A stretch of DNA of 64,000 nt from Candidatus Absconditabacteria bacterium (GCA_028685875.1 JAQUDD010000003.1:1-64000), one strand, 5' to 3'; shown: positions 12,731 through 27,493, numbered from the stretch's first letter. Numbers and translations: made by a program. The notes: generated from the sequence alone by a model not told the origin.

Positions 12731-13429
12731 TTATGCTGCCACTTTTCCTTTTTTTTGCTCTTCATCTATTTTCTTTTTCCACTCTTCAAGTCCTATTAAT
12801 TTCTTATTTGCAGCGTCTAGCTGTCATGTCACAGTTTTAAGACTTTCTACTAATGCTTGTTGTGTCTCTTGTATCTTTGCTAATGCTTTAGCTGTACCAT
12901 CTTCTTTCTTCTCTTCAGGTTTTTCTGATCATTCTTTTTTCTCAGATTTTTCCTCCTTCTTTTCATTTCCTTTTGATAATCGTTGTCGTTTTGATATTTG
13001 ATTCTTTTTACTTACTCCTCTTTCTCCTAGATGTTCGTATTTAAAGTTTTTTGGATCATCTTCGTGAGCGGTCCATTTAATAGTATTCCCTTCATTTACC
13101 AGTAAGTTTCCAGCTACATCTCTTGTATTGCAAAAAAGATTCCAAGTAGGGTTTAATACTGCTCTAATTGCTCCTTCTCCTATTGTACCTGCTGCCACGA
13201 ATGGACTTGCAATCCCGTTGATAATTTTTTGGTACCATTTCCCCTCATTAAATGCTTTTCTGAAGACTTCTTTTGTGTGTTTAGTAGTATCTCAAAGTAC
13301 TTCAAAAATCTCTTTTGGATAATTAAATCCAGAACGAGCTAGATCTAAACTTCCATACCCTACGTTACCAACAGTTCTTGTAGCTAATCCGATTGTGTTG
13401 CGGGTTCTATTTCGTAGTTTAAGTGCCAT
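12731..13429 (-). CDS. Hypothetical protein with C-terminal coiled coil
   Basis: 232 aa, ATG 13427-13429 on the minus strand (MALKLRNRTRNTIGLATRTV), stop TAA at 12731. TGAs encode Gly at about 13294, 12926 and 12835. The first 100 residues are mixed, with GIASPFVAAGTIGEGAIRAV as a mildly hydrophobic patch. Then comes a highly charged Lys/Glu stretch and a long helix with heptad character (ALAKIQETQQALVESLKTV, QLDAANKKLIGLEEW). No signal peptide seen. It is transcribed divergently from the giant gene at 13618, with a consensus promoter for each direction between them, so the two may be functionally linked. Function unknown. Confidence 0.7.
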
Positions 13430-13461
13430 CGTATATGATTTATTATAAATACATTTTGTTT

Positions 13462-13489
13462 ATTATAAACAAAATAAATATAAAGTCAA
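13462..13489 (-). promoter_or_regulatory. Consensus promoter for the minus-strand gene
   Basis: On the minus strand: TTGACT (13489-13484), 16 bp, TATAAT (13467-13462). Confidence 0.8.
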
Positions 13490-13559
13490 ATGTAATTATT
13501 GTTTTTTTGTATTTTTTGTTGTTTTCTTTATGGTATTTATCAGATTTACTTCTGATAAC

Positions 13560-13588
13560 TTGCCAATTTTCTCTTTCCCGATTATACT
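13560..13588 (+). promoter_or_regulatory. Promoter of the giant zincin-motif gene
   Basis: TTGCCA, 17 bp, TATACT. The leader to ATG 13618 is about 23 nt and has no Shine-Dalgarno. Confidence 0.75.
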
Positions 13589-13617
13589 TAGGTATCTTTA
13601 CTATTTTAGTATACCTT

Positions 13618-16600
13618 ATGTCATCTTCCTCATCTCTTTCTCGTAGTGAACAACTGTATGAAAAGGCAAAATCAGCCTTAAATAAGAATAGTTATTCTAC
13701 AGCTAAGGATTTAGTACAAGAACTGCAAGCAGATTTTTCCTTTCTTTCTTTTGATGATTGGAAACTCTTCCATACTCAGCTTTCAGAGCTTATTGCGAAT
13801 GATACTCTCTCGGATATTGAAAGGGAGAGATTTGTTAAACTTCAGCAAGAATTGGCTTGGCATTATCCCCCAAAGTTAGAGCATACTCCTGAAAATGAGT
13901 GAAGGCTTGTGAATAGAGATCAATTGGCTGATGATATCAGTAAGAATAGATTTGAGAATGGAATACATGGTAATAATAACTGATTTCCTGCGGGAAATAT
14001 TATCCTTAGACATAAGGAGAATATCACTATAGAGTTTTCTAGTTTGCCTTTTTACAGTGAATTAAGACAGGAATATGAGAAAGCGTTGAAGATTACTGAT
14101 GCTTATACGAGAAATACACAACTTTCTAAACTAGATACTCAATTTGCAGAGAGAATCATTCTATGACAGCAAGATGTTAATTATATTCAATTAGATAATC
14201 CAGCAAACCAAAAATCTGATGTACAACTGAGAAAAGAGGCGGTTCGTGCAATTCAAGGATTGACGAAAGCTGGCCTTGTTCCTCAAGGGAAGAAGTTGGA
14301 ATATGTGATTTTGGGTAATAAGGACCTGTTTGATACAGAGTATAGAAAACATCTTCAAGAAAAACTTAAAAAACTCAATCAGGAGGATCCTTCTAAACGC
14401 ATCAGAAATGCGAGGAAATGGGCGACCCAAGAGCTTCTGTTGGAAGAGATGACTTTATCTAAGTTACAAGAATTGGTTAAGGAATATGAAGATAAAGTGG
14501 CTTCTGAATCTATTTATAATGTAGGGAATCACGAATCTCTTATTATTTTTAAAGATGCCTTGTCGCATGCATCGCAAGAGTGATATCTTCATCATGTTGT
14601 GAGATTGGTTGATGAATCAGAACCGAAACCAGAACCGAAACCAGAACCGAAACCAGAACCGAAACCAGAGCCAAAACCAGAGCCGAAACCAGAGCCGAAA
14701 CCAGAACCGAAACCAGAGCCAAAACCAGAACCAAAACCAGAACCAAAACCGGAGCCAAAACCAGAACCAGAGCAAGAAATTCTAGATAATATAGATATCT
14801 CTGCTGTGCTTTCTAATGTTTCTTCTTCTATTGAAGAGAGAGTTTCTCGTGAAGTAGAAAATGAAATGAAAGATGAATGGAATACTATGTCCTGGATAAA
14901 TCCCAAAAAACTTGGTCGTTTCTTTGCTAGAGGATGGACGAGGAAAAGAAGAATAGCGAAAAGGAAAAAAGATATGGATACGGGAGCTTTTTATAACTCA
15001 AACGTACTCAATACGGAAATGTCCCTCCAGGCTGATAGACATGCTTTGGAGGTAGCACAAGGAGTAGGTAAAGCGGAAAAGAAGCTTACTCTTAAACTTG
15101 AGGATGCTAATCAAGAAAAACTTAATCAATTAGCAAAACAATATATAGAAGGAAAGATTACGGAAATTGAATTTCAAAAACAATTTAATGAAATTGTAAA
15201 AAATGATTCCTACATCAGAAATAATAGAAAATATTTTGAGAAAGTTAATGCAAATAAAGAATCTGGAATAGATTTTGTAGGAACGAATATCCTGCTTCAA
15301 CTCAAAAGAACAAAAGCTGAGAAAAATCTCAAAGCGAGAACAGCTGATGCAATTTCTAATTATATGAAGGACAAAGATCCAAAGCATCTTGATGAAATCA
15401 AAAGACTCATGAATGAGTATACGGAGACATTCAGACAAGATCCAAGTATTAGAAAGCAGATTTTTGGAACTGATGGAAATATTGACCCGAAGGATATTGA
15501 GAAGCTTGAGAAAATCGCTAAGCATCGAAAAGGATGTAATGCTACTGCTGTTGGGAATGTACAAGTTGCTCTCGATCTGATTGCAGATGGAGAAGGTGCC
15601 TATGAGATCGATAAGAAAAAAGCGAATATGAAAGGTATTTATAAACTTGGACATCGATTAGATAAAAACCGATGGGTTAGCCCTCTTGCTATAGGATGAC
15701 TTACGGTACTTACAGGATGAATTGTCTGACTTACTGCTGGAGCGGTGGCAGCTGGTTGGGCAACGGCATGAGTGGCTGGTTGAACTGTTGGATTTAAAAA
15801 TTTCCTAGCAAAATGGACTCATCATACCAAAGAACACAATACGCATGAAAAAGATTTGGTGAGAGATTTTGAGCAGACTAAACAGAAAATGGATAATTGG
15901 AGAGCTGATATTGCAGAAGAATGGGCGGTTTTGGAAAATCCTAACTCTAGCTGGACAGAGAAGATGAAAGCAAATATGTCTATCCTTAAAAGTCGTAAAA
16001 AATATAAAGCAAAAAGACAACTTCAACTCTATGAAAAAACTACACAAAGTTATGATAAATTTGAAGATACTAGGCAGATTTCTGATATTATTATGAAAGG
16101 AATCAACCAATCTCTTTCTTCAGAAGATAAAAATACCTTTAATGCAGTAGTGCTTGATGCCTATGCGAGGCTAGACTTTTATAGAAAATCAGGACATAAT
16201 TATCTCAAATCTGAAGATAGAAATAGTATTGAGTCAGATTTTCATGCTTTGGAATCTGCATTGACATTGGTTGCCAGTAGATCGGGAGCAAAACTTACCG
16301 ATATTCCAGCTCTTATTTCTGCGAGAGGTGATGATGGAAAGGTAGTTAATTATACAGAGATAAGAAAAGAATTTGAGTCTGATTATGCAGCAGCTAAATC
16401 AAGATTTAAACAACAAAGGGCTTGGCTTGCTACCAAATGGTGAGTATCTACAGCCGCTCTTACTTTTGGAACGAGTGTTGCATCGCAGTATCTCTTTGGT
16501 TCGGGGATTTTTTCAGGGAAGGATAAGGTGGTCGAGGAACTGCTGACCTCTAGTTCCTCAGTTCATGATAATTTCTCACTTTCTCAGTCTGAGTTTATTG

Positions 16601-18522
16601 ATGGAAATGTTGTTTTGAATGAATCTAGAAATGTATTTAATGGATTGGGAGAAGGGGATGTAGTAAAACTTAGATTTGGGGCAGGAACAGATGGAACAGG
16701 ATTAAAGTCCTGAGCGGATCAGATTTTTCAGTGAGACTATAGTAGTAAAATAGATGCCGTGAAATCAGTAGTGAATCAATCAAATCTAGCTAATAAATCA
16801 GAAATACTTTCTTTTATTGATTCAAAACCATGGGAGGCTTCTTGGAGTCAGGATTTCTTAAGTGACCATCTTCAGGGTGCAAGATGTCTTGAACTTATTG
16901 AAGAAACTATTAAGGGGGCATGAACTTCTCATGCAAAATTAGAACTTATCTATGATACTAGTAATTCTGTAGCAGGGACCAACTGGAATACAGCAGCGGA
17001 GAGAGTAGGGCATGCTGCGTTTGAAGTGTTAGATAAGACGATTACGACGCTTCCTGGAGAAGCTCCTAAGGAAATCTTCTGGAAGCATATCCCTATCCCT
17101 TGGTTTTCTAACACCTTCAGAAGAAATAAAAAGGATAGGGTAGAAGATAACAACCAGAAAAAGGATACTAAAGACCAGCAACCCGCTGATAAACCTGCTG
17201 TGGATCCAGAGAAAAAATTTGATCGTGAAGTTAAGTATTTCCCTTATAAACCTGCTGACCCAGAAAAGGATCCCGATAAGTTTTTTGGAGATGATTTAGG
17301 AAAGTGAAGACCAGAAAAAAGAGAAATAGGAGAGAAAGGGCATATTAGTACTAGAGGTCAGAAAATATGGACGGATAAGGATGATTTTTGAAAGGAATAT
17401 CCATGAGATTGAAAAATGCCTTCTATTGAAGTGACTCTTGCTTGTTTGCTGAGGAAGAATTTTTTATTGCAGGAAGATCAGGAAGTTATTAGAAAGATGA
17501 GATTGGAAGGAGCTAGACTTGAAGATATTTATGCATATATAAAGAAGAAAATTACCCAACAAAGAGAAGCTGCTGATAAGAAAAAGAATGAGTGGAAATT
17601 TGACATGCTTTTTGATCAATGTATTACAGCGGTTCCTAATTCTTTAGAGAAGATTTTGGGAAAAGATATGTCTAAAAAGCTGAATTCTCCCTTAGATAAA
17701 AATAGAGTGCATTTGGTAGGGGATTATGATTTTATCTCAATCGCTTGACCAACTGCTGCAGGAGTTTTTAGGACTGAATCTTGAGATATTTATGTTTCTC
17801 AAAAGGCTGTAGAAAAGTATGAGAATTATCCTCCTTTGTGAGAATATACTGATAATGATTGAGGTAAACATATTTTTCCAAGGATTTTCTGGGAGATTAA
17901 GCATATTTTGATTCATGAAATGCTTCACAGTATGAGTGTGTTGAATTATAATATGTTTAAAGACTCTCTTTCCACTAGACGTTTAGGTTTATTACATCGG
18001 GGTCTTGGATATGCTAAAGAAAAAGGTCGTGGTATCAATGAGGCTTCAACTGAAAACCTTGCCCAGTTGATTTTAAAAATGCTTTATAATGATGAGGGCT
18101 TGTCTTCTTATAAACCTGGATGGATCTCTTATCAACAGGAACAAAGAATTATTAACCAAATGTTAGAAAGTGATTCAGGTGAATTTGAATGGAAAGATGT
18201 ATATACTGCTATGCTTATTAGAAAATATAGTGAGGGAGAAAAAGTTGAGAAGAATACTCCATTGTTTCAGCTGCTTTCTAAGATTAATGGAGGAGAAAAT
18301 CCTGTTAAGGCAAAGAGACCTTATTACTATCAGATTATTACTTCTCTTATGGATAGTGATCTAGTAAAAGGAAATATTGTTCTGGATTTTGTAAAAACAA
18401 AGAATGTGAAAGACTTAAAACACAAATTATGAACAGCCTTTAATAAGATATTTGATAAATCATTACTTAATGCTGATACGTCGGACTTTAACGATTTTAT
18501 TTTACAGAAGTATACCAAATAG
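13618..18522 (+). CDS. Giant (1634 aa) protein with Pro/Glu/Lys repeat linker, hydrophobic segments and HEMLH zincin motif
   Basis: One frame from ATG 13618 to TAG 18520 once about two dozen TGAs are read as Gly. Regions in order: a helical N-domain; an E-P-K-P tandem linker at residues 335-386; a basic segment ([15 protein letters not shown]); a helical domain; a Gly/Ala-rich hydrophobic hairpin-like stretch near 692-728, where many glycines are TGA; a second helical domain; another hydrophobic patch near 942-963; a charged Asp/Lys/Pro linker near 1180; and a C-terminal domain with HEMLH at residues 1433-1437. A downstream [10 protein letters not shown] could give the third zinc ligand of a gluzincin. 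No signal peptide is evident. Likely a large envelope-associated or secreted protease or effector. The role is inferred from the motif and the neighbouring secretion genes only. Confidence 0.75.
14620..14775 (+). repeat. 12-bp tandem repeat encoding an E-P-K-P linker
   Basis: About 12 copies of a 12-bp unit (gaaccgaaacca with G/A third-position changes), all within one frame of the giant gene. The encoded Pro/Glu/Lys rod resembles TonB-like extended linkers that span an envelope. Synonymous variation between copies shows selection on the protein. Confidence 0.9.
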
Positions 18523-18986: not shown

Positions 18987-19841
18987 TTATTGGGTAAGTT
19001 CTCGTTCAAGGATCTTCAGATATTTTGGGAAGAGTCCATATCTTGTTGAGCTACCGCTTCGCACCTCATTTTCATATCCCTCAAAGAAGTACTTGGGTGC
19101 TGCAGGAGAGATTTCTCCATATACGGTCGCTCCGCTTAATCCATTGTAGAGTGCGGCGAATCTCCAGAGGTCGGTATAACTGGCTCCTGTATAGCTGAGG
19201 TCTATGCTCAATCCGTCAGCTTTATTTCTTTCATTATATCGATTGATTTTATTCCGTGAGAAATCCATGAAGTCTTGCACGGTCTGGAAAAAGAGTTCTT
19301 CGGTGATTGTTCCTGTTCCATAGTCTTTACTTACAATTTGGAATGGTCCGTCTCCGTTTCTGGGTAGTGCATATCCACAGGTTGACTCTCTATATCGGAC
19401 CGCAATGGTTAGGGCTGTTGGAAAATTGTTGGCAAAGCTGATATTATCTAAAGAATTGTATCGTCCTAGACAGTTTTCATAGACATCTTGTTCTAGGGTT
19501 ATATCTTCTTTGTATTCATCCCCAAAATCATTTTTATATGTGATGCTCTGCTGTTTTGCAAGATTCTTTCTACTAGAAAATTGAGTATAACTAAAATCTC
19601 TTAGGTGTTCTAAAAGGTATTGTACTCTTTCCTCGCCTATGGTAATTTTGGAGAGTTGTTTAAACTGATCGTAGTAGTTTCGTAAATCTTTGTTATCGCT
19701 ACTGATGAGGATATTTTTGAGTTGGGCTAGTTTGGTGTTGTCCGATTCTGTAGGAGTGTAGGAAGCTTGTACTTGCGTTCAGATATATCCTAATGATATT
19801 ACAGAACAGATCAGTAAAAAAGCTGGCAGCTTTCTTTTCAT
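18987..19841 (-). CDS. Secreted lytic-transglycosylase-like protein
   Basis: 284 aa, ATG 19839-19841 (minus), one TGA after the signal peptide, stop TAA at 18987. A signal peptide (KLPAFLLICSVISLGYIG) precedes a helical region. A lysozyme-like core follows: ALTIAVRYRESTCGY, where the Glu is the likely catalytic acid, then GDGPFQIVSKDYG, the usual G-x-x-Q element of goose-type/Slt transglycosylases. FAALYNGLSG matches the AYNxG motif. Such enzymes cut peptidoglycan to let a secretion channel or pilus through. It is the last gene of a minus-strand cluster after two VirB6-like genes, in line with a VirB1-type role. Confidence 0.75.
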
Positions 19842-19917
19842 TCTTTGATTTAGAGGGTAAATCGTAGTTGAATGATAGAAAAACTTTTCAGCTTTGCAAG
19901 GAGTTTTTGTCAGGGTT

Positions 19918-21825
19918 TTAAAAAGATTCTTCTAATAATTCTTTTGCACTTGGTACGGTAGTTGTTCTTCCTAAGAAATTATTCCAAAAACTTTTTCTAG
20001 CATCATCGTTTGCTAGTACTTTTTCTATTCTTTCATCATTGTTTTCTATTGTCTTACTAACTTTATCCCATTCTCTAAAGAAATCCGTTGTATTTATTGT
20101 CTCATCATTTTTACTTCCCTCTCCATTCATTCGTGCATAAAAATGAGGTTTCCAATTTGGATCATTGAATCAGATTTTTTGTCCATTATTTATGATTTCT
20201 TTTGAAACTGTCCTGAATTCGTTTGTCGGCTTTCTACTTGCTTGGCTTAATTTAGTATATATCTCGGGATCAGGGCTTTTGTCGTCAACAAACATTTTGA
20301 GGATATTCTTTTCTTGTCTGGTGATTTCTTCATTAAAGTTATCTCTTCAGGCTGCTTTTATATCGTTATAGGTTCTTCACACGCTTCCCATACTCACTCC
20401 TCCTTTTCCACCTACAGGAATGAGAGGTAACTCCTTGAATCCCGTCTGTATGAAATCAGTACTCCATTTGCTAAAGTTCTTAATCGCTCAGATTTTGTTT
20501 CCACTAGTGATTCCCAGTTTAATTACCATCCGGATCATAACTAGGGTGATAATCGAGAGGATCATATCGAGAAAACTTTTTCCAAGTCCTTTTATAGAGA
20601 CAGAACTTATGGGGGTTTCAATTTTTGTATCATATTTAGGAGTAGCGCTCGTACTACTGACTTCTGTACTTGTTATCGTTACATTGTTTAGTTCTAGACT
20701 ACCCTGATTACTTTTTTTAATAACATCCTGCATGAGAGTCATCAAAATAAGTGTAACAGAGAGCGCTAAAGTAATAATTACTGGCTTGAATGCCAAACTT
20801 ATAAATCCTCACAGATTGATTCCCTTTTCTCCTAATGTTTTCGATATTCCTCATAGGTCACTTTTTTCCTTATTTCCGACATTTTCTAGACAAAACAAAA
20901 GAATAAGTAGCGGTGAAATAATGATAAATATCCGAAGATACACGATCCTAATCAATGCTATAATACATAGGAGCACCATAGCTACTCCGTAGATAATGAT
21001 ACTTGCTCCGTTGATGATTAATTGAATAAACGCTCCAACTAATCCTCCTACGGTATCAGTTAAGTTTAGGGGCTCTATTTCTGTAATTTCTAAAATATTA
21101 ATTCCTATAAAAATCAGTACTCCATCAAGGGAATTTTCATTAGGTAAAATAGCATCAATTATTCCTTTTTCACTTACTTCTTCGGTGAGTTTCACTTTTT
21201 CAATAACGAATCCGTCATCTCCCTTGTAGGTTCGCATCTTTTTTTCTGTGAATAGGGTCTCATGTGCATTTTGTGCACTTTTTACTTTTTCTAAATCTCC
21301 CAATAGAGCTCATTCTGTTATATTTTTATAGATAGTTGAGTTGTTGGCTGTGATTTGTGCAGGAAAAGATCCTACGGCTGCAGTTGCAATATTGGAAAGA
21401 TCAATAATGGCTGCTGTTAGAAATCGACTTGCTTGAATTCCTACTCCTGCAACAAGGATTTTTATGATAATATCTTTTGCAAATCCTACTCCTTGTCCTT
21501 TTCCAATGAGTTCCTTCCCAATATAATAGATAAAAAGAAATCAGAGGATGTAGTTTGCAATATTTCTCATCATATTTCGCAACATCCAGAGATAACTGTC
21601 CAATCCTAGTACTTCTCCATATACTCGAGAATTACTTAGTAACTCTCCACCTATTTTGGCAAAGATAATCCATCCCCAAGACAAAAAGCTGAGGATAAAG
21701 TGGAAAAAGGTTGCGAGATTTTGCATCCCACTAGCTCCCGCCTCTGCGGCGAAACTATAATCAAAACCTATCATTCCAATCATGGTTATGATGATAAGTG
21801 TTTTGATGATAGTCTTTTTTTTCAT
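19918..21825 (-). CDS. VirB6/TrbL-like polytopic membrane protein (copy B)
   Basis: 635 aa in one code-25 frame. Start MKKKTIIKTLIIITMIGMIG at 21825, stop TAA at 19918. A signal peptide is followed by several helices, the paralog-defining block (VYGEVLGLDSYLWMLRNMMRNIANY, then ILVAGVGIQASRFLTA), a soluble loop, a cluster of strong membrane helices (IIIYGVAMVLLCIIALIRIV) and a charged cytosolic tail. The closest relative in view is its neighbour at 21855-24218. Large TrbL/VirB6 proteins form the inner-membrane pore of type IV secretion systems. It lies 29 nt behind copy A and ahead of the transglycosylase, so likely one operon. Family assignment rests on topology, the conserved block and context. 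Confidence 0.65.
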
Positions 21826-21854
21826 TACGATGAGTATATTGTTGTTAAATAAGA

Positions 21855-24218
21855 TTAACTTGTTGTTGGTTTTTCATTTGTTGTTTTTTCTTTAGGAACA
21901 ATTTGTTCTCAGACGATGTGATATACTGCTTCTCAAATTTTTCGTTCATTTGTATTGTCTTTTATTTTTTTGTCTGCTACTTTTTTTTTCATTTCTTCAC
22001 TTAGACTGTTGAATATTTTTTGTAGACTATCTAGTGTAGTAGCACCATCTAAGAATGCTATAATATCCTCTTCACTAGAGGCGTTTTCTTTCTTTTGTAA
22101 TGAGGTAATAAATCTTTCTTGAGCATCGCTCATTTTTCCTAGATCTGCCATGGTAAACACCAAATCTTCTTCTCTTCCGTTTATGTTTTTCTTGATCGTG
22201 TACCTGTGTCCCGATTGCCAATTCCTACTATTAAAGTCTTCTATTATTTGTGTTCTTTCAGTGTTTGTTATTTTTGTTTTTGCTGTTTCTTTATCTTGCT
22301 CAATTTGCTTTAATTTATCTTCAACCAGTCCTCCTGCTCCCATACTCTGAAGAAATTCAGCCATATTTTTATCGCTAACATCTCCCATGCTTCTTGTGAG
22401 CTGACTTCCTACTCTACTTAGAGATTGTGTTCAAAGCTGTCCAATACCAATTCCTCCTGCGACAGGAATGATTGGTGCGCTCGTAATAGCTTTTTCTGCA
22501 AGTCATTGTGCAAAGGTTCCGAAGCTTTTTCCCACGCTATTCACTTTTATCGCCCAGAAGAGGAGGAACCGTACGATGGTTATTCCGAGTATTGAGAATA
22601 TAAGTTGAGAGAAATCTAGTACACCTTCTGCAATATTTACTTCAATGATTCAAAGAAAGTCTGACATATCTATTCCACTTGCTTTCGTAGTAAAGTCTTT
22701 AATGATTGTTAAGAAGACGGTAGATATACTTACTGCAAGGGTTATGAGTACTGGAGCTACTAATAGTTTTATAACTTCATTAAATTGGAATATTGATAAA
22801 TTTTTTAGTACATTTTTCTCTCGATCAAAAACCTTTAGGATAATCAAGATGGGAGAGAGTGCTATAAATACCCAGAGGATCCCTATTCTTGCAACGAGTA
22901 CCACTACGAGACAAACGAGAGGAACAAGTAATGCTATTGCATAAAGGATATTTATGAGTCAATAGATAAATTGTAGATAGAATCAGGTATTTGTCCCTTG
23001 TTCATGATTAATAAATGAGAGGAGATTACTATAAAGGGTACTGAATACTCCCACGTATCCTTCAGCTTTATCTAATAGATTTCCCAGTTCTGTTCCTGCT
23101 CAATCATCTCAAATTCTTAGATTTCTTGTATCATATCAGAATTCAGGAAACCCTTCTTTCTGTGTATAAGAGATTATTTTTCCGTCACTTCAGGAAAAGA
23201 TTCTTACATTGGGTGTTGATTGTAAAAAGATCCCATCAATAATTCTCTCATTTGTTTCCTCTATAGCTCCTGTTAAGTTTTCGCTAATTCTACTTCGTTC
23301 TGCTTTTATTGCTGTATTATACTTTTCTTGAATCTCATTAGCTTTTGTCAAATCATCTGGAATAGTTTGTATTTCTCAAACAAATGGAGACTGTCCTTCG
23401 TTATATCGATATATTCCTCCGTTGTGGTTACAAACTCAAGATTTTGTTCTTTGTATTTTATTGTTTTTGTCCACATAGAAAAGTACCTTTCTTCCTAGTA
23501 ATAATTGATCCTGCCTTCAAAAAGGGAAAGTTTGCATGATGCATGGTGATATTTTTTCTCCTTTCCCATCCTCTCCTCCTATATTGGTAGTTTGGATCAT
23601 GAGTACTCAGGAGAATTTATCTTTAATATATATTTCATTTCCTAGGACATATGAGGTGTTTTCTCTTGTATTATTTTCTGTTGTCTTAGTTTCTTTTAGC
23701 ATACTAATCGGTAATCCACCGATTCCATAGGTAGCGATTGTTGAGATATCCACAGCAGCAGCTGTTAGAAATCGACTTGCTTGAATTCCTACTCCCGCAA
23801 CCACGAGTTTCAAAATGATGTCTTTGATTGCTTTTGAGGCTTCTTCTTTTCCTAGTAATATTTTCCCAATATAAAAGATGAAAATAAATCAGAGTGCATA
23901 ATTTGCGATATTTCTCATCATGGTCCACATTGACCATAATGCGGTATCAAATCCAAAAACTTCTCCGTATACCATGCTATTGTCCATTGCATATCCTGCA
24001 ACGAAAAGAAGGGGCCATAGTACTACATAAAATACTTGTGATAATACGGTAAATGTTTCATTCCAAGTAGTGAGATTTTTTTCTAGATCTGCTGTGGTTG
24101 ATGCAAAACTTAGATTAGCTTCTGTTCCAATTCCTAATAAAAATATTGCGACGATAAAAAGAGTAATTATTCCGTATAGTATATACTTATTTTTCTTTTT
24201 ATTAGTTATATCCTTCAT
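21855..24218 (-). CDS. VirB6/TrbL-like polytopic membrane protein (copy A)
   Basis: 787 aa, ATG 24218 (minus), stop TAA at 21855, with more than 15 internal TGAs. The signal or first helix (KYILYGIITLFIVAIFLLGIG) is followed by the same block as copy B: SMVYGEVFGFDTALWSMW, MMRNIANYAL and VVAGVGIQASRFLTAAAVDI. A long extracytoplasmic segment of about 220 residues separates it from a helix-rich pore region (NILYAIALLVPLVCLVVVLV, SILGITIVRFLLFWAI). The hydrophilic C-terminus carries MGDVSDKNMAEFLQSMGAGG. Probably the main inner-membrane channel component of a divergent type IV secretion or uptake machine. Expressed from the promoter at 24255-24283. Confidence 0.65.
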
Positions 24219-24254
24219 GTCTTAAGTTTTGAGAAGCAAATAAATTACTTCTCT

Positions 24255-24283
24255 AGTATATTCGACTTTCTCTAAAAAATCAA
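24255..24283 (-). promoter_or_regulatory. Promoter of the VirB6-like/transglycosylase operon
   Basis: On the minus strand: TTGATT (24283-24278), 17 bp, TATACT (24260-24255); leader of about 30 nt. Confidence 0.7.
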
Positions 24284-24356
24284 AAATCTGCTTTCTTTTT
24301 TCAATTTCTTCTACCTTTTTTTGAGATAGTGTATCTAATATGTTTTTTGGTATAAA

Positions 24357-24384
24357 AAAATACATCAACTGGTGATGTATTTTT
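24357..24384 (-). terminator. Terminator of the SLH-like membrane protein gene
   Basis: AAAATACATCA ACTGG TGATGTATTTT with a T7 run on the minus strand, 25 nt after the stop at 24409. It separates this gene from the VirB6-like operon. Confidence 0.8.
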
Positions 24385-24408
24385 ATTTATGAGATGTTCT
24401 TAGATTTC

Positions 24409-25593
24409 TTAGAGCGTATCTGTAGTTACATATCCACCTTTCTTACATCCATTTAATACGTTAAGTTCTTCTGCCTTCTCTCGATATGCTGCCTTAATAT
24501 CTGTATAGGATCCAACATCCCATCCCGCCGCAAGTCCTTTGATTACTGTATAGGTTTCACAAGAAATTTGTTTGTTGGGCTCCGTGGATTTTCCAATCAT
24601 TCTTTTTTCATATGCAGTTTTGAAGTAGGGGTAGTTCTCATTTGATTTACCTACGTAAGTGAAGCTAATGTCTGTTTTTGTGGACAATGGGATATTGTAG
24701 TTTTCGATTACATGTTTTAGTGCATCAGCCATAGTAATGTTTGTTATTTCTGTGGTGGAAACTTCTATTTCTTCATTACTATTTCCTGTGTTTGTTTCTA
24801 TTTCGGGAATCGAAGTTCCTCCTATTCCTAGATTTTCATTCTCTTCAAGGGTGTTAAATCCAGAAAGTACTTCTCCTGTAGATTCAAAGATATATTCTCC
24901 TGTTCCTATATTAGGATCGTTTTCTTCTTGATCTTGATCGGGAGTAGTTATTTTGGATAGTGTATGTACATTTGGAATATATTGATTAATAGTATTGATG
25001 AGCTTATCACTTCCATAACTAAATACAAGTGCGTATGCTAGGGCTACTATCCCTATTATGTAATAGAGTTTAGATGCACCCAATGTGTTTACTCTGTCAA
25101 ATCCGTTTGTCCCTATAATTTTACCGATAATTACGAAGCAAACTAATCCAATAATTATTGCTAAGATTCCTGCCCAGTGGAGAAAGAATTCACGTAAGAT
25201 AAAATAAGCACAGGCTCCGATAATAAGCGATATGAAGAAAATAATCCACGCTCCTCGTGTAGAGTTTCTTTTCTTTTTCTTTTTCTCAATAGGGGCAGGA
25301 GTGGTTTGTACTACTTTTTGGATACTGATTTTCTCTGTGAACACAGTTTCTTTGGGATTGTTGGTTTCTTGTATCACTTCTTGTTCAATGCTGACTTTAT
25401 TTGGGGATTTTTTTTCTTTTTTGGGAGAAGTTTCTCTGGTACAAAATGCATAAACAATGCTAATGAGAAGGATTGCGATAGCATTGATTACTGCTAACCG
25501 GTAGAAGCTCGTTTCCTTTCGTAGGAATCCTATAATGAGGCTCTGTCCTACGAAAAAATACAGCGAGAAGAGGAGAAATAAATTTTTTGTCAT
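24409..25593 (-). CDS. Membrane protein with degenerate SLH-like C-terminal domain
   Basis: 394 aa, ATG 25591-25593 preferred over an upstream TTG at 25608; stop TAA 24409; no internal TGA. There are two helices at the N-terminus (LFLLFSLYFFVGQSLIIGFL, LAVINAIAILLISIVYAFC), a Lys-rich cytosolic loop, then three more helices to about residue 210. An acidic linker follows, and then a domain after residue 290 with SLH-like spacing: MADALKHVIENY, FTYVGKSNENYPYFKTAYEKRM and ISCETYTVIKGLA. It may anchor the secretion-like machine to the surface layer. It lies divergent from the pilin operon at 25748. Confidence 0.6.
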   Translation of the reverse strand: MTKNLFLLFSLYFFVGQSLIIGFLRKETSFYRLAVINAIAILLISIVYAFCTRETSPKKEKKSPNKVSIEQEVIQETNNPKETVFTEKISIQKVVQTTPAPIEKKKKKRNSTRGAWIIFFISLIIGACAYFILREFFLHWAGILAIIIGLVCFVIIGKIIGTNGFDRVNTLGASKLYYIIGIVALAYALVFSYGSDKLINTINQYIPNVHTLSKITTPDQDQEENDPNIGTGEYIFESTGEVLSGFNTLEENENLGIGGTSIPEIETNTGNSNEEIEVSTTEITNITMADALKHVIENYNIPLSTKTDISFTYVGKSNENYPYFKTAYEKRMIGKSTEPNKQISCETYTVIKGLAAGWDVGSYTDIKAAYREKAEELNVLNGCKKGGYVTTDTL

Positions 25594-25640
25594 TGTGGAG
25601 ATACTCAAAAAGTTAAAAACTAGCTTTTATATTTCTTCAT

Positions 25641-25668
25641 TGTATATAGAATTAGTTGTTTGTTTCAA
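25641..25668 (-). promoter_or_regulatory. Promoter of the SLH-like membrane protein gene
   Basis: On the minus strand: TTGAAA (25668-25663), 16 bp, TATACA (25646-25641). Confidence 0.6.
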
Positions 25669-25684
25669 TACCAAGACTAAAAAT

Positions 25685-25713
25685 TTGCTTTTTTGGAGAT
25701 TTTTGGATACAAT
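25685..25713 (+). promoter_or_regulatory. Promoter of the pilin/TraC-like operon
   Basis: TTGCTT, 17 bp, TACAAT; leader of about 28 nt to ATG 25748. Confidence 0.65.
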
Positions 25714-25747
25714 TTAGAGGAAGTTTTTATCTTCTCTCAGTTAGCTT

Positions 25748-26248
25748 ATGAAGAAAAGTCTTTATTTCTTATTATGATTCTTAATCTTTTTGTGAGTTCC
25801 CTCACTGATTGTGAATGCTATCGGTCCTTTTACTCCTGAACAATATGTTGGTTCTACGGAGAGAGAAGATTTTCTTGATGGAGACCGTATTGATGCGAAT
25901 AATCCTATTAGGGAAGGAATGCAGGGAATTATCAATAGCCCTACTTGAGATGATACTGTTGAGGGAGTTATTACAGGGACTCCTATTCAGACTCATAATC
26001 AGGCCGTACAGGCAACTATGCATTTAATACAGATTGTTATTAATTATTCTCTGGCATTACTTGGATTTGTGGCTTTAATTTATATTATTTATTCAGGATT
26101 TTTGATTTTTACGGCTGGAACTGATGATAAACAGCAGGCAAAGGGGAAGAGTTGAATTAAGATTGCGATCATTGCGTTAGCTGGAATTGCGGTGGCTTGG
26201 TTGATTGTTAGTTTTATTCTTTGGCTTATTACCCTGATTACTTCATAA
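25748..26248 (+). CDS. TrbC/VirB2-like pilin
   Basis: 166 aa, ATG 25748 to TAA 26246, with TGA (Gly) at 25775, 25793, 25946 and 26153. A signal peptide (SLYFLLGFLIFLGVPSLIVNA) precedes an acidic spacer. Two membrane helices follow, VINYSLALLGFVALIYIIYS and AIIALAGIAVAWLIVSFILW, joined by the basic loop TDDKQQAKGKSGIK. This is the same architecture as the genes at 7441 and 26272. It begins a three-gene operon with the next pilin and the TraC-like protein. Likely pilus subunit or small channel component. Confidence 0.65.
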
Positions 26249-26271
26249 TTTATTTTCTTTATCTTTGTTTG

Positions 26272-26763
26272 ATGAAATCCTTCTCTCTTTCCTTGTGTAC
26301 TTCCGTATTTGCTCTTTTGCTTGCTACACCTATGTTTGCACAGTATAATAGCGATTTTTATTATGATACTCCTAATGCCTCAACTAATCAACAGGTTGCA
26401 ACTGAAGATCTGTGAACTATTGTTGCTGATGGAGTGGTTACAGAAAATGATTCCTTGCTAAATAGTTTCTTGAGGATGTTTGGTTTTGGGGCAGGGGATT
26501 ATGAGAATAACACCTTAAAAGCTCTTGTGTATATTAAAGCAATCATTAACCTTCTCTTAGGCTTGGTCAGCTTTGTAGCCTTAGTTATTATTATCTATTC
26601 GTTTTATGGAATGTTTTTTACTGAGGACTCCAAGGGAATGGAAAAGGTCAAGAAAAATCTTATTGGAGTGGTCATAGCTTTGGTGGTTTTAGGACTTTCT
26701 TGGATTATTGTTAGTTTCCTTTTTGATTTTTATCAGACTAAACTCGTAAGTGGGGTAATATAG
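26272..26763 (+). CDS. TrbC/VirB2-like pilin
   Basis: 163 aa, ATG 26272 to TAG 26761, one TGA (26413) as Gly. The signal peptide (SLSLCTSVFALLLATPMFA) ends in a good cleavage site before QYNSDFYYDT. Two helices, INLLLGLVSFVALVIIIYSF and LIGVVIALVVLGLSWIIVSF, are separated by EDSKGMEKVKKN. It lies 23 nt after the preceding pilin gene and 25 nt before the TraC-like gene. Confidence 0.65.
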
Positions 26764-26788
26764 TTTTATTTTATAGATTTATCTCTTT

Positions 26789-27493
26789 ATGCTCTTTAAC
26801 TCTTGAGATCAGAATAAAATTAAGAAGACTGCACCGGATAGTCTTTTTAACACGGAAGCAATGCTTCCTATTTCTGAAATTAGAGATGGCGTGATAGTGC
26901 TTAAAGATGGGGGACTAAGATCTGTTATTAGGGTAGAAGGGCTCAATCTTGATTTGAGAAATTTTGAAGAACAGGAGGTGGTCCTTGAGCAATATAAAAG
27001 ATTTTTGAATGGACTTTCTTTTCCTCTTCAGATTTTGATTAGGAATTCTTATTTGAATTTGACTGATTATCTTTCTTATATTAAGGGAAATCTGAAGAAA
27101 ATTGATAATGTTGCCTTACACCAACAAGGTGATCAGTATCTTTCTTTTTTGCAGGGAATCGATGCAAAACAAGGTCTGATCTTTGTAAAAGAGTTTTATA
27201 TTATTGTTCCCTATTATGAGACCGATCAAGATACTTCTCAAGTGGGAAAATCTCGATGGGATAAATTCCTTAATGTTTTGAATGCGAAAGATGATGTCGA
27301 GGCAGTGGTAGAAAGATATAGAAAATTTATCAAAGGAGAGAAGCAACTTCAAACAAGAGTTTCTTTAGTTATGGAAGGACTTTCTGGAATGAGAATGAAT
27401 TCTGAGCAGCTTACTACTTCAGAAATTGTATCTTTGCTTTTTCGTATGTATAATCCTTTGTTGGATAGCGCTCAGGCAAAATTTGTTGAATAA
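26789..27493 (+). CDS. TraC/VirB4 N-terminal-domain-like protein without ATPase domain
   Basis: 234 aa, ATG 26789 to TAA 27491, one TGA (26804) as Gly. The start region LPISEIRDGVIVLKDGG, followed by RSVIRVEGLNLDLRN and FLNGLSFPLQILIRN, matches the N-terminal domain found on TraC/VirB4 ATPases and stand-alone in CPR genomes. No Walker motif is present and no ATPase gene follows, since a convergent gene starts immediately. The energising ATPase must therefore be encoded elsewhere. Last gene of the pilin operon. Confidence 0.7.

What the first reader, a model, noticed from the sequence alone, without database searches (positions are those of the whole stretch)
18987..27493. Divergent type IV secretion-like locus with twin VirB6-like channels
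Two large paralogous polytopic proteins (787 and 635 aa) share the block VYGEV-G-D..LW..MMRNIANY plus VAGVGIQASRFLTA. They share an operon with a secreted lytic transglycosylase. Across a divergent junction lie an SLH-like membrane protein, two TrbC-like pilins and a TraC/VirB4 N-terminal domain with no ATPase. Dedicated promoters flank each unit. The set looks like an envelope-spanning machine for DNA uptake or for contact with a host or prey cell, arranged unlike classical systems.
Basis: partly seen in the sequence, partly recalled or inferred. Interest (0 to 1): 0.8.

Follow-up and report, generated by a model that had tools for sequence, protein, structure and literature searches.

The report
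Scattered secretion machine with paired VirB6
This stretch holds about half the parts of a type IV secretion machine in a tiny, probably host-dependent bacterium; it includes the channel-platform protein VirB6 that a recent survey could not find in this group, present here as two specialised copies, which gives a named target for asking how such bacteria connect to their host cells.

Summary
The window lies in a 1.03 Mb genome that uses code 25 (relatives are titled candidate division SR1/Absconditabacteria). P0003 (787 aa) and P0002 (635 aa) are divergent VirB6/TrbL proteins. No single-sequence library search finds them, but profile-profile comparison with Patescibacteria VirB6 gives 99.6%, E 4.9e-24, with controls at or below 25%. 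P0005 and P0006 are T4SS pilins. P0007 is TrsD, an N-terminal VirB4-like piece without the ATPase. The rest lies elsewhere in the genome: VirB4 ATPase on contig C14, with weaker candidates for VirB3/PrgI (C5) and VirD4 (C11). Relaxase PF03432 is absent from all 59 genomes searched.

A 2025 survey (PMC12102498) described this Patescibacteria T4SS but reported VirB6 as absent in class Gracilibacteria. I find it in 55 of 59 relatives, mostly single-copy outside the window's family and duplicated once at that family's base. VirB6a has a long cysteine-bearing loop; VirB6b mostly lost the cysteines. Genomes usually have one VirB4 and one TrsD, so both copies probably serve one machine.

Not supported: 'dedicated promoters' (chance level). 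Lytic transglycosylase and SLH calls are weak. Transport direction and substrate are unknown.

The parts
21855..24218 (-). VirB6a (P0003, 787 aa): VirB6/TrbL-family polytopic protein with a long loop carrying two cysteines invariant in its family
   Evidence: Profile-profile match to Patescibacteria VirB6, 98.6% for the VirB6a profile alone and 99.6% for the joint profile; Cys226 and Cys263 invariant in 23 rows; loop lengths
19918..21825 (-). VirB6b (P0002, 635 aa): paralogue with a short loop without cysteine
   Evidence: 98.8% to Patescibacteria VirB6; paralogy to P0003; sister clade in the tree; VirB6 chains at the top of the PDB fold search, not significant
18987..19841 (-). SLT/lysozyme-like secreted protein (P0001), candidate VirB1; weak call
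   Evidence: Conserved directly downstream of VirB6b in 17 loci counting the window; invariant E152 and GPFQI, YNG motifs; marginal profile match to SLT
24409..25593 (-). P0004, membrane protein with an extracytoplasmic C-terminal part ('SLH-like' in the finding; unnamed family)
   Evidence: Conserved next to VirB6a and/or divergent from the pilins in other genomes; no library family
25748..26248 (+). VirB2-like pilin 1 (P0005)
   Evidence: PF18895 1.9e-8 over cut-off; NF045849 2.1e-9, below cut-off
26272..26763 (+). VirB2-like pilin 2 (P0006)
   Evidence: PF18895 1.6e-7 over cut-off, TrbC 2.8e-4 below cut-off
26789..27493 (+). TrsD / VirB4 N-terminal-like protein without ATPase (P0007)
   Evidence: NCBIfam VirB4_plasma 3.3e-13 and TrsD 5.1e-8, both below full-length cut-offs; directly upstream of virB4 in G047, G026 and G034
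24354..24392 (-). Terminator-like hairpin with T run between P0004 and VirB6a
   Evidence: Read directly from the sequence; too few G-C pairs for the scan

Best explanation
The locus encodes part of the chromosomal MPF-FATA-like type IV secretion system that most Patescibacteria carry. Here its genes are scattered, and its VirB6 was duplicated once at the base of this family into two specialised copies. Proposed mechanism: VirB4 (C14), anchored by PrgI/VirB3 (C5) and helped by the separate TrsD (P0007), powers assembly. VirB6a and VirB6b together form the membrane platform or channel on which the VirB2-like pilins (P0005, P0006) build a short pilus or conduit. The SLT-like protein opens the peptidoglycan, and a VirD4-like ATPase (C11) may feed substrate. 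Inferred use: contact-dependent exchange with a host or prey cell, not conjugation. Shown here: the identities of VirB6, the pilins, TrsD and VirB4; conservation of the set; one duplication; asymmetric divergence; no PF03432 relaxase. Inferred: both copies in one machine, the pilus, the opening of peptidoglycan, the host contact, and the substrate and its direction.
For: VirB6 homology by profile with reversed and other-membrane-family controls; pilins; TrsD found in 57 of 59 relatives and adjacent to virB4 in several; VirB4 over cut-off in 55 of 59 relatives; PrgI and VirD4 candidates; VirB6 profile in 55 of 59 relatives; tandem order in about 30 genomes; reciprocal clades with 99/99 support; loop and cysteine asymmetry; no PF03432 relaxase in 59 genomes; the same gene set in one row on a Bacilli plasmid; reported T4SS essentiality in a Saccharibacterium (PMC12102498).
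Against: No direct evidence of function. The structure model is weak (pLDDT 62) and its PDB matches are not significant. PrgI and VirD4 candidates are below Pfam cut-offs. The SLT call is marginal. Three genomes of the family, one of them a single contig (G032), have VirB4 and TrsD but no detectable VirB6.
Confidence: 0.8

Rival explanations
1. The two VirB6 copies belong to alternative states or separate machines (for instance one for export and one for import, or host-specific versions) that share one VirB4 by turns, rather than to one hetero-oligomeric channel.
For: Old, asymmetric divergence of the copies; several further pilin genes elsewhere in the genome, C14:51384-52268 and a double pilin beside VirB4, could make alternative assemblies.
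Against: Usually one full-length VirB4 and one TrsD per genome; the copies are adjacent in tandem and co-retained in about 30 genomes.
Confidence: 0.3
2. It is a conjugation system or the remnant of an integrated conjugative element.
For: VirB4 is of the CD1110 family and the coupling-protein candidate resembles CD1115, both named after an element-borne conjugation system; pilins resemble the mycoplasma ICE family.
Against: No PF03432 relaxase in 59 genomes; parts scattered over several chromosomal loci and conserved across a whole family.
Confidence: 0.07
3. P0002 and P0003 are unrelated polytopic membrane proteins (transporter or wall-synthesis factors) that merely lie beside pilin genes.
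For: No single-sequence Pfam, NCBIfam or PDB hit for them; own genome negative for PF04610.
Against: Profile-profile homology with clean controls; one family member reaches TrbL at 3.7e-4 on its own; repeated association with pilins and TrsD; VirB6 chains rank 1, 4 and 10 of 350,542 PDB chains.
Confidence: 0.05

Closest known systems
Patescibacteria T4SS, MPF-FATA-type (PMC12102498; reported there as essential for epibiotic growth of Ca. Southlakia epibionticum)
   Same: VirB4, TrsD, PrgI/VirB3, VirB2-like pilins, VirD4-like protein away from virB4, no relaxase; TrsD not linked to virB4 in class Gracilibacteria.
   Different: That survey found VirB6 absent in Gracilibacteria; here it is present and, in the window's family, doubled with asymmetric loops.
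Compact T4SS cassette of Bacilli plasmids (Pontibacillus NZ_CP062975.1, Geobacillus NZ_AP022558.1)
   Same: Pontibacillus: pilin, pilin, TrbL/VirB6, PrgI-like, TrsD, VirB4 of the CD1110 family and a peptidoglycan hydrolase in one row.
   Different: One VirB6 gene, one contiguous cassette, on plasmids; hydrolase with M23 and NlpC/P60 or SLT domains instead of the short SLT-like protein.
Mycoplasma ICE conjugation module (NCBIfam Mbov_0395 pilin-like, Mbov_0397 VirB4)
   Same: Pilins and P0007 match these models.
   Different: In that VirB4 model the part matched by P0007 belongs to the same protein as the ATPase; it is a mobile element.
Rickettsiales T4SS with several VirB6 paralogues (PMC7648143, PMC3556328)
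   Same: Several VirB6 paralogues with unequal extensions in one T4SS of a host-dependent bacterium.
   Different: A diderm system acting on eukaryotic cells; probably an independent duplication (inference).

Membership tests
VirB6/TrbL | Sequence homology over the membrane core | tested here: met
   hhalign 98.6-99.8% against PF04610-positive Patescibacteria proteins; controls at most 24.9%
VirB6/TrbL | Direct Pfam PF04610 match above cut-off | tested here: not met
   No match in the own genome or in the class members listed; one of 37 family members at 3.7e-4. This is an operational cut-off of a model, not a structural feature
VirB6/TrbL | VirB6 fold | tested here: inconclusive
   R388 VirB6 chains rank 1, 4 and 10 but E 1.6-3.4; model pLDDT 62
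VirB6/TrbL | Pentameric platform/channel | not testable with these tools
   No complex prediction available
Type IV secretion system (MPF-FATA-like) | VirB4 ATPase in the genome | tested here: met
   C14:134870-137182, NF045971 5e-106 over cut-off
Type IV secretion system (MPF-FATA-like) | VirB3/PrgI | tested here: inconclusive
   C5 candidate, PF12666 1.0e-4, below cut-off; above cut-off in nearly all class relatives outside the family
Type IV secretion system (MPF-FATA-like) | Coupling protein VirD4 | tested here: inconclusive
   C11 candidate, PF02534 1.2e-4 and NF045973 2e-10, below cut-offs
TrsD | VirB4 N-terminal-like protein without ATPase, beside virB4 in relatives | tested here: met
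   NF041427 5.1e-8 (below its cut-off) and NF045975 3.3e-13; adjacent to virB4 in G047, G026, G034 and a Bacilli plasmid
VirB2/T4SS pilin | PF18895 above cut-off | tested here: met
   P0005 34.7 bits, P0006 31.7 bits, cut-off 26.6
SLT lytic transglycosylase (VirB1) | SLT domain with catalytic Glu | tested here: inconclusive
   No Pfam match in 17 members; marginal profile match at the Glu and GxxQI motifs; no PDB fold match
Conjugative element | Relaxase | tested here: not met
   PF03432 in 0 of 59 genomes; other relaxase classes not tested

The most novel reading that the evidence does not exclude
The code-25 family that includes the window runs one host-contact T4SS whose inner platform is an obligate hetero-oligomer of two VirB6 types: one carrying a disulphide-stabilised outward loop that faces the pilus or the partner cell, the other a barer channel former. 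I know of no such platform described for a monoderm-type T4SS.
Probability: 0.4. Interest if true: 0.75.

Novelty: new variant of a known kind. Interest (0 to 1): 0.52.

Why it matters
T4SS genes were reported essential for epibiotic growth in a Saccharibacterium, but VirB6 was reported absent in class Gracilibacteria (PMC12102498), and the paper on the predator Vampirococcus (Absconditabacteria) does not mention a type IV secretion system (PMC8080830). Identifying VirB6 in this group, in two specialised copies, completes a plausible parts list and makes it testable whether predatory and parasitic relatives use this machine to draw material from, or deliver it to, host cells.

Tried and rejected
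Pfam and NCBIfam on the single VirB6 sequences: nothing. PDB sequence search with profiles of VirB6, TrsD and SLT: nothing meaningful. hhalign of TrsD against VirB4-N of the same genomes: no signal, with profiles of low diversity; NCBIfam's broader model did detect it. The AlphaFold model of the SLT-like protein was poor in the catalytic region and gave no PDB match. The search for related loci with the widest alignment had no usable stretch. The large protein P0008 was considered as part of the system and rejected: no homologue among the large proteins of the other loci read; UvrA is the usual neighbour there. Duplication tied to code 25 was rejected: TGA-reading genomes outside the window's family (G048, G057) show a single VirB6. 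Promoter claim: at chance level. A single Bacilli VirB6 against the family profile gave only 14.6%.

Full report
Setting. The window is G000:C4:1-64000 of a 1,025,715-base genome in 16 contigs, 99% complete. Frames are open under code 25. Related records are titled candidate division SR1, Absconditabacteria and Gracilibacteria, one of them Peribacteria.

The observation. All seven genes exist as described. Minus strand, in transcription order: P0004 (membrane protein), P0003 (787 aa), P0002 (635 aa), P0001 (secreted). Plus strand, divergent: P0005 and P0006 (pilins, PF18895 over cut-off) and P0007. P0002 and P0003 share a block at 54% identity. The promoter claim fails: sigma-70-like sites are as frequent as in shuffled sequence. 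A terminator-like hairpin after P0004 is visible in the sequence, so P0003-P0002-P0001 may be a separate transcript.

VirB6. Neither protein hits Pfam or NCBIfam. The Pfam TrbL/VirB6 model finds nothing in this genome or in the class members listed, while it does match 36 of 145 genomes across the phylum. I built a profile from 37 relatives (A1) and one from 24 of those phylum-wide VirB6 proteins (A2). hhalign gives 99.6%, E 4.9e-24, over the membrane core. Split by group, VirB6a gives 98.6%, VirB6b 98.8% and the single-copy class relatives 99.8%; reversed profiles give at most 24.9% and two other membrane families at most 0.6%. One member of A1 reaches TrbL at 3.7e-4 by itself. The AlphaFold model of P0002 is weak (pLDDT 62) and its PDB matches are not significant, but R388 VirB6 chains rank first, fourth and tenth among 350,542 chains.

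Duplication and divergence. The A1 profile finds the family in 55 of 59 relatives. In the window's family 33 of 36 genomes have it; in about 30 genomes read in detail, the window included, the two genes stand in tandem, and G011 has three copies. Outside the family most genomes have one copy, including TGA-reading ones (G048, G057). The tree puts all VirB6a rows in one clade and all VirB6b rows in another (SH-aLRT 99 and 99), with the six single-copy rows outside: one duplication at the base of the family is the simplest reading. The loop between the two membrane blocks is 136-235 aa with 2-6 cysteines in VirB6a, 69-159 aa with 2 or 4 in single-copy relatives, and 54-102 aa without cysteine in 23 of 24 VirB6b rows of A7; some deep VirB6b rows of A1 keep two. 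So VirB6a enlarged, and VirB6b mostly lost, a probably disulphide-bonded loop; that it faces outward is inference. Paired PF04610 hits on one strand in G074 and G092 suggest that tandem VirB6 genes also occur elsewhere in the phylum.

The rest of the machine. P0007 matches NCBIfam VirB4_plasma at positions 94-233 and TrsD, is in 57 of 59 relatives, and lies directly upstream of virB4 in G047 (PrgI-TrsD-VirB4) and in G026 and G034. The VirB4 ATPase of the window genome is on C14 (NF045971, 5e-106), in 55 of 59 relatives, followed here by a membrane protein and a double pilin. A PrgI/VirB3 candidate is on C5 and a VirD4-like ATPase on C11, both below Pfam cut-offs. No PF03432 relaxase was found in 59 genomes. 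On a Pontibacillus plasmid the same set stands in one row: pilin, pilin, VirB6, PrgI-like, TrsD, VirB4, peptidoglycan hydrolase. The window therefore looks like a fragment of such a cassette that was broken up, with VirB6 doubled; the direction of that change is inference.

Synteny. The divergent unit P0004 | pilin-pilin-TrsD recurs in L151, L154, L156, L161, L162, L163 and L189; in L151, L162 and L163 (and in L161 up to the contig end) it directly adjoins VirB6a-VirB6b-SLT as in the window. P0008 is not conserved; UvrA is the usual neighbour elsewhere.

SLT and SLH. P0001 homologues share an invariant Glu, GPFQI and YNG in the order of lysozyme-like transglycosylases, and a profile of known SLT proteins aligns at those motifs with marginal score. 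Pfam, the PDB and the structure model give no support. I treat it as a likely but unproven VirB1 equivalent. P0004 matches no library family; 'SLH-like' rests on eye.

Mechanism. From T4SS knowledge (PMC12857230), VirB6 forms a pentameric platform or channel on which VirB2 assembles, and VirB3 and VirB4 belong to the same inner complex. With usually one full-length VirB4 and one TrsD per genome, both VirB6 copies probably serve one machine. Exchange with a host or prey cell is inferred from the lifestyle of relatives and from the reported essentiality of the T4SS in a Saccharibacterium (PMC12102498). Substrate and direction are unknown.

Novelty. The T4SS itself, its TrsD separated from virB4 in class Gracilibacteria, and its pilin arrays are already described (PMC12102498). 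New here, as far as the papers I could search show: the missing VirB6 in this class, its family-specific duplication and asymmetric divergence, and the parts list of one genome. The exceptions in the family are G032, G008 and G009 (no VirB6 detected); G032 is a single contig, so real loss or further divergence is possible.

Noticed in passing
window 13423-18522: Large protein (about 1650-1700 aa) with twelve-base PEPK-type repeats (14618-14768, 12.6 copies), a hydrophobic stretch and an HEMLH metalloprotease-like motif near its end; no homologue among the large proteins of the related loci read.
   Followed up: partly
L236 5273-14826 (NZ_CP062975.1) and L237 8570-17246 (NZ_AP022558.1): Bacilli plasmids typed non-mobilizable carry a compact T4SS cassette (PrgI, TrsD, VirB4, peptidoglycan hydrolase); the Pontibacillus one includes two PF18895 pilins and a VirB6, although Gram-positive T4SSs are generally said to lack VirB2.
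   Followed up: partly
L003 12154-13104 (G000:C14): A protein of 316 aa with three PF18895 stretches: a fused double or multiple pilin beside VirB4; in G032 the equivalent frame is 694 aa (L188).
   Followed up: no
G000:C14:51384-52268 (L196 7385-8269): Two further tandem PF18895 pilins away from any other T4SS gene; eleven PF18895 matches in the genome.
   Followed up: no
G032 (L188, L189): Genome in a single contig with VirB4, TrsD, pilins and P0004 but no detectable VirB6, although its genus-mate G025 has both copies.
   Followed up: partly
L048-L053, next to or near the single VirB6: In class relatives very large proteins without Pfam match (784-1665 aa) and a conserved 167-177 aa membrane protein sit beside or near VirB6; possible unknown T4SS parts.
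   Followed up: no
L003 13197-14651 (G000:C14): A RuBisCO-like large-subunit gene, named by eye from its sequence, lies directly downstream of the VirB4-pilin cluster.
   Followed up: no
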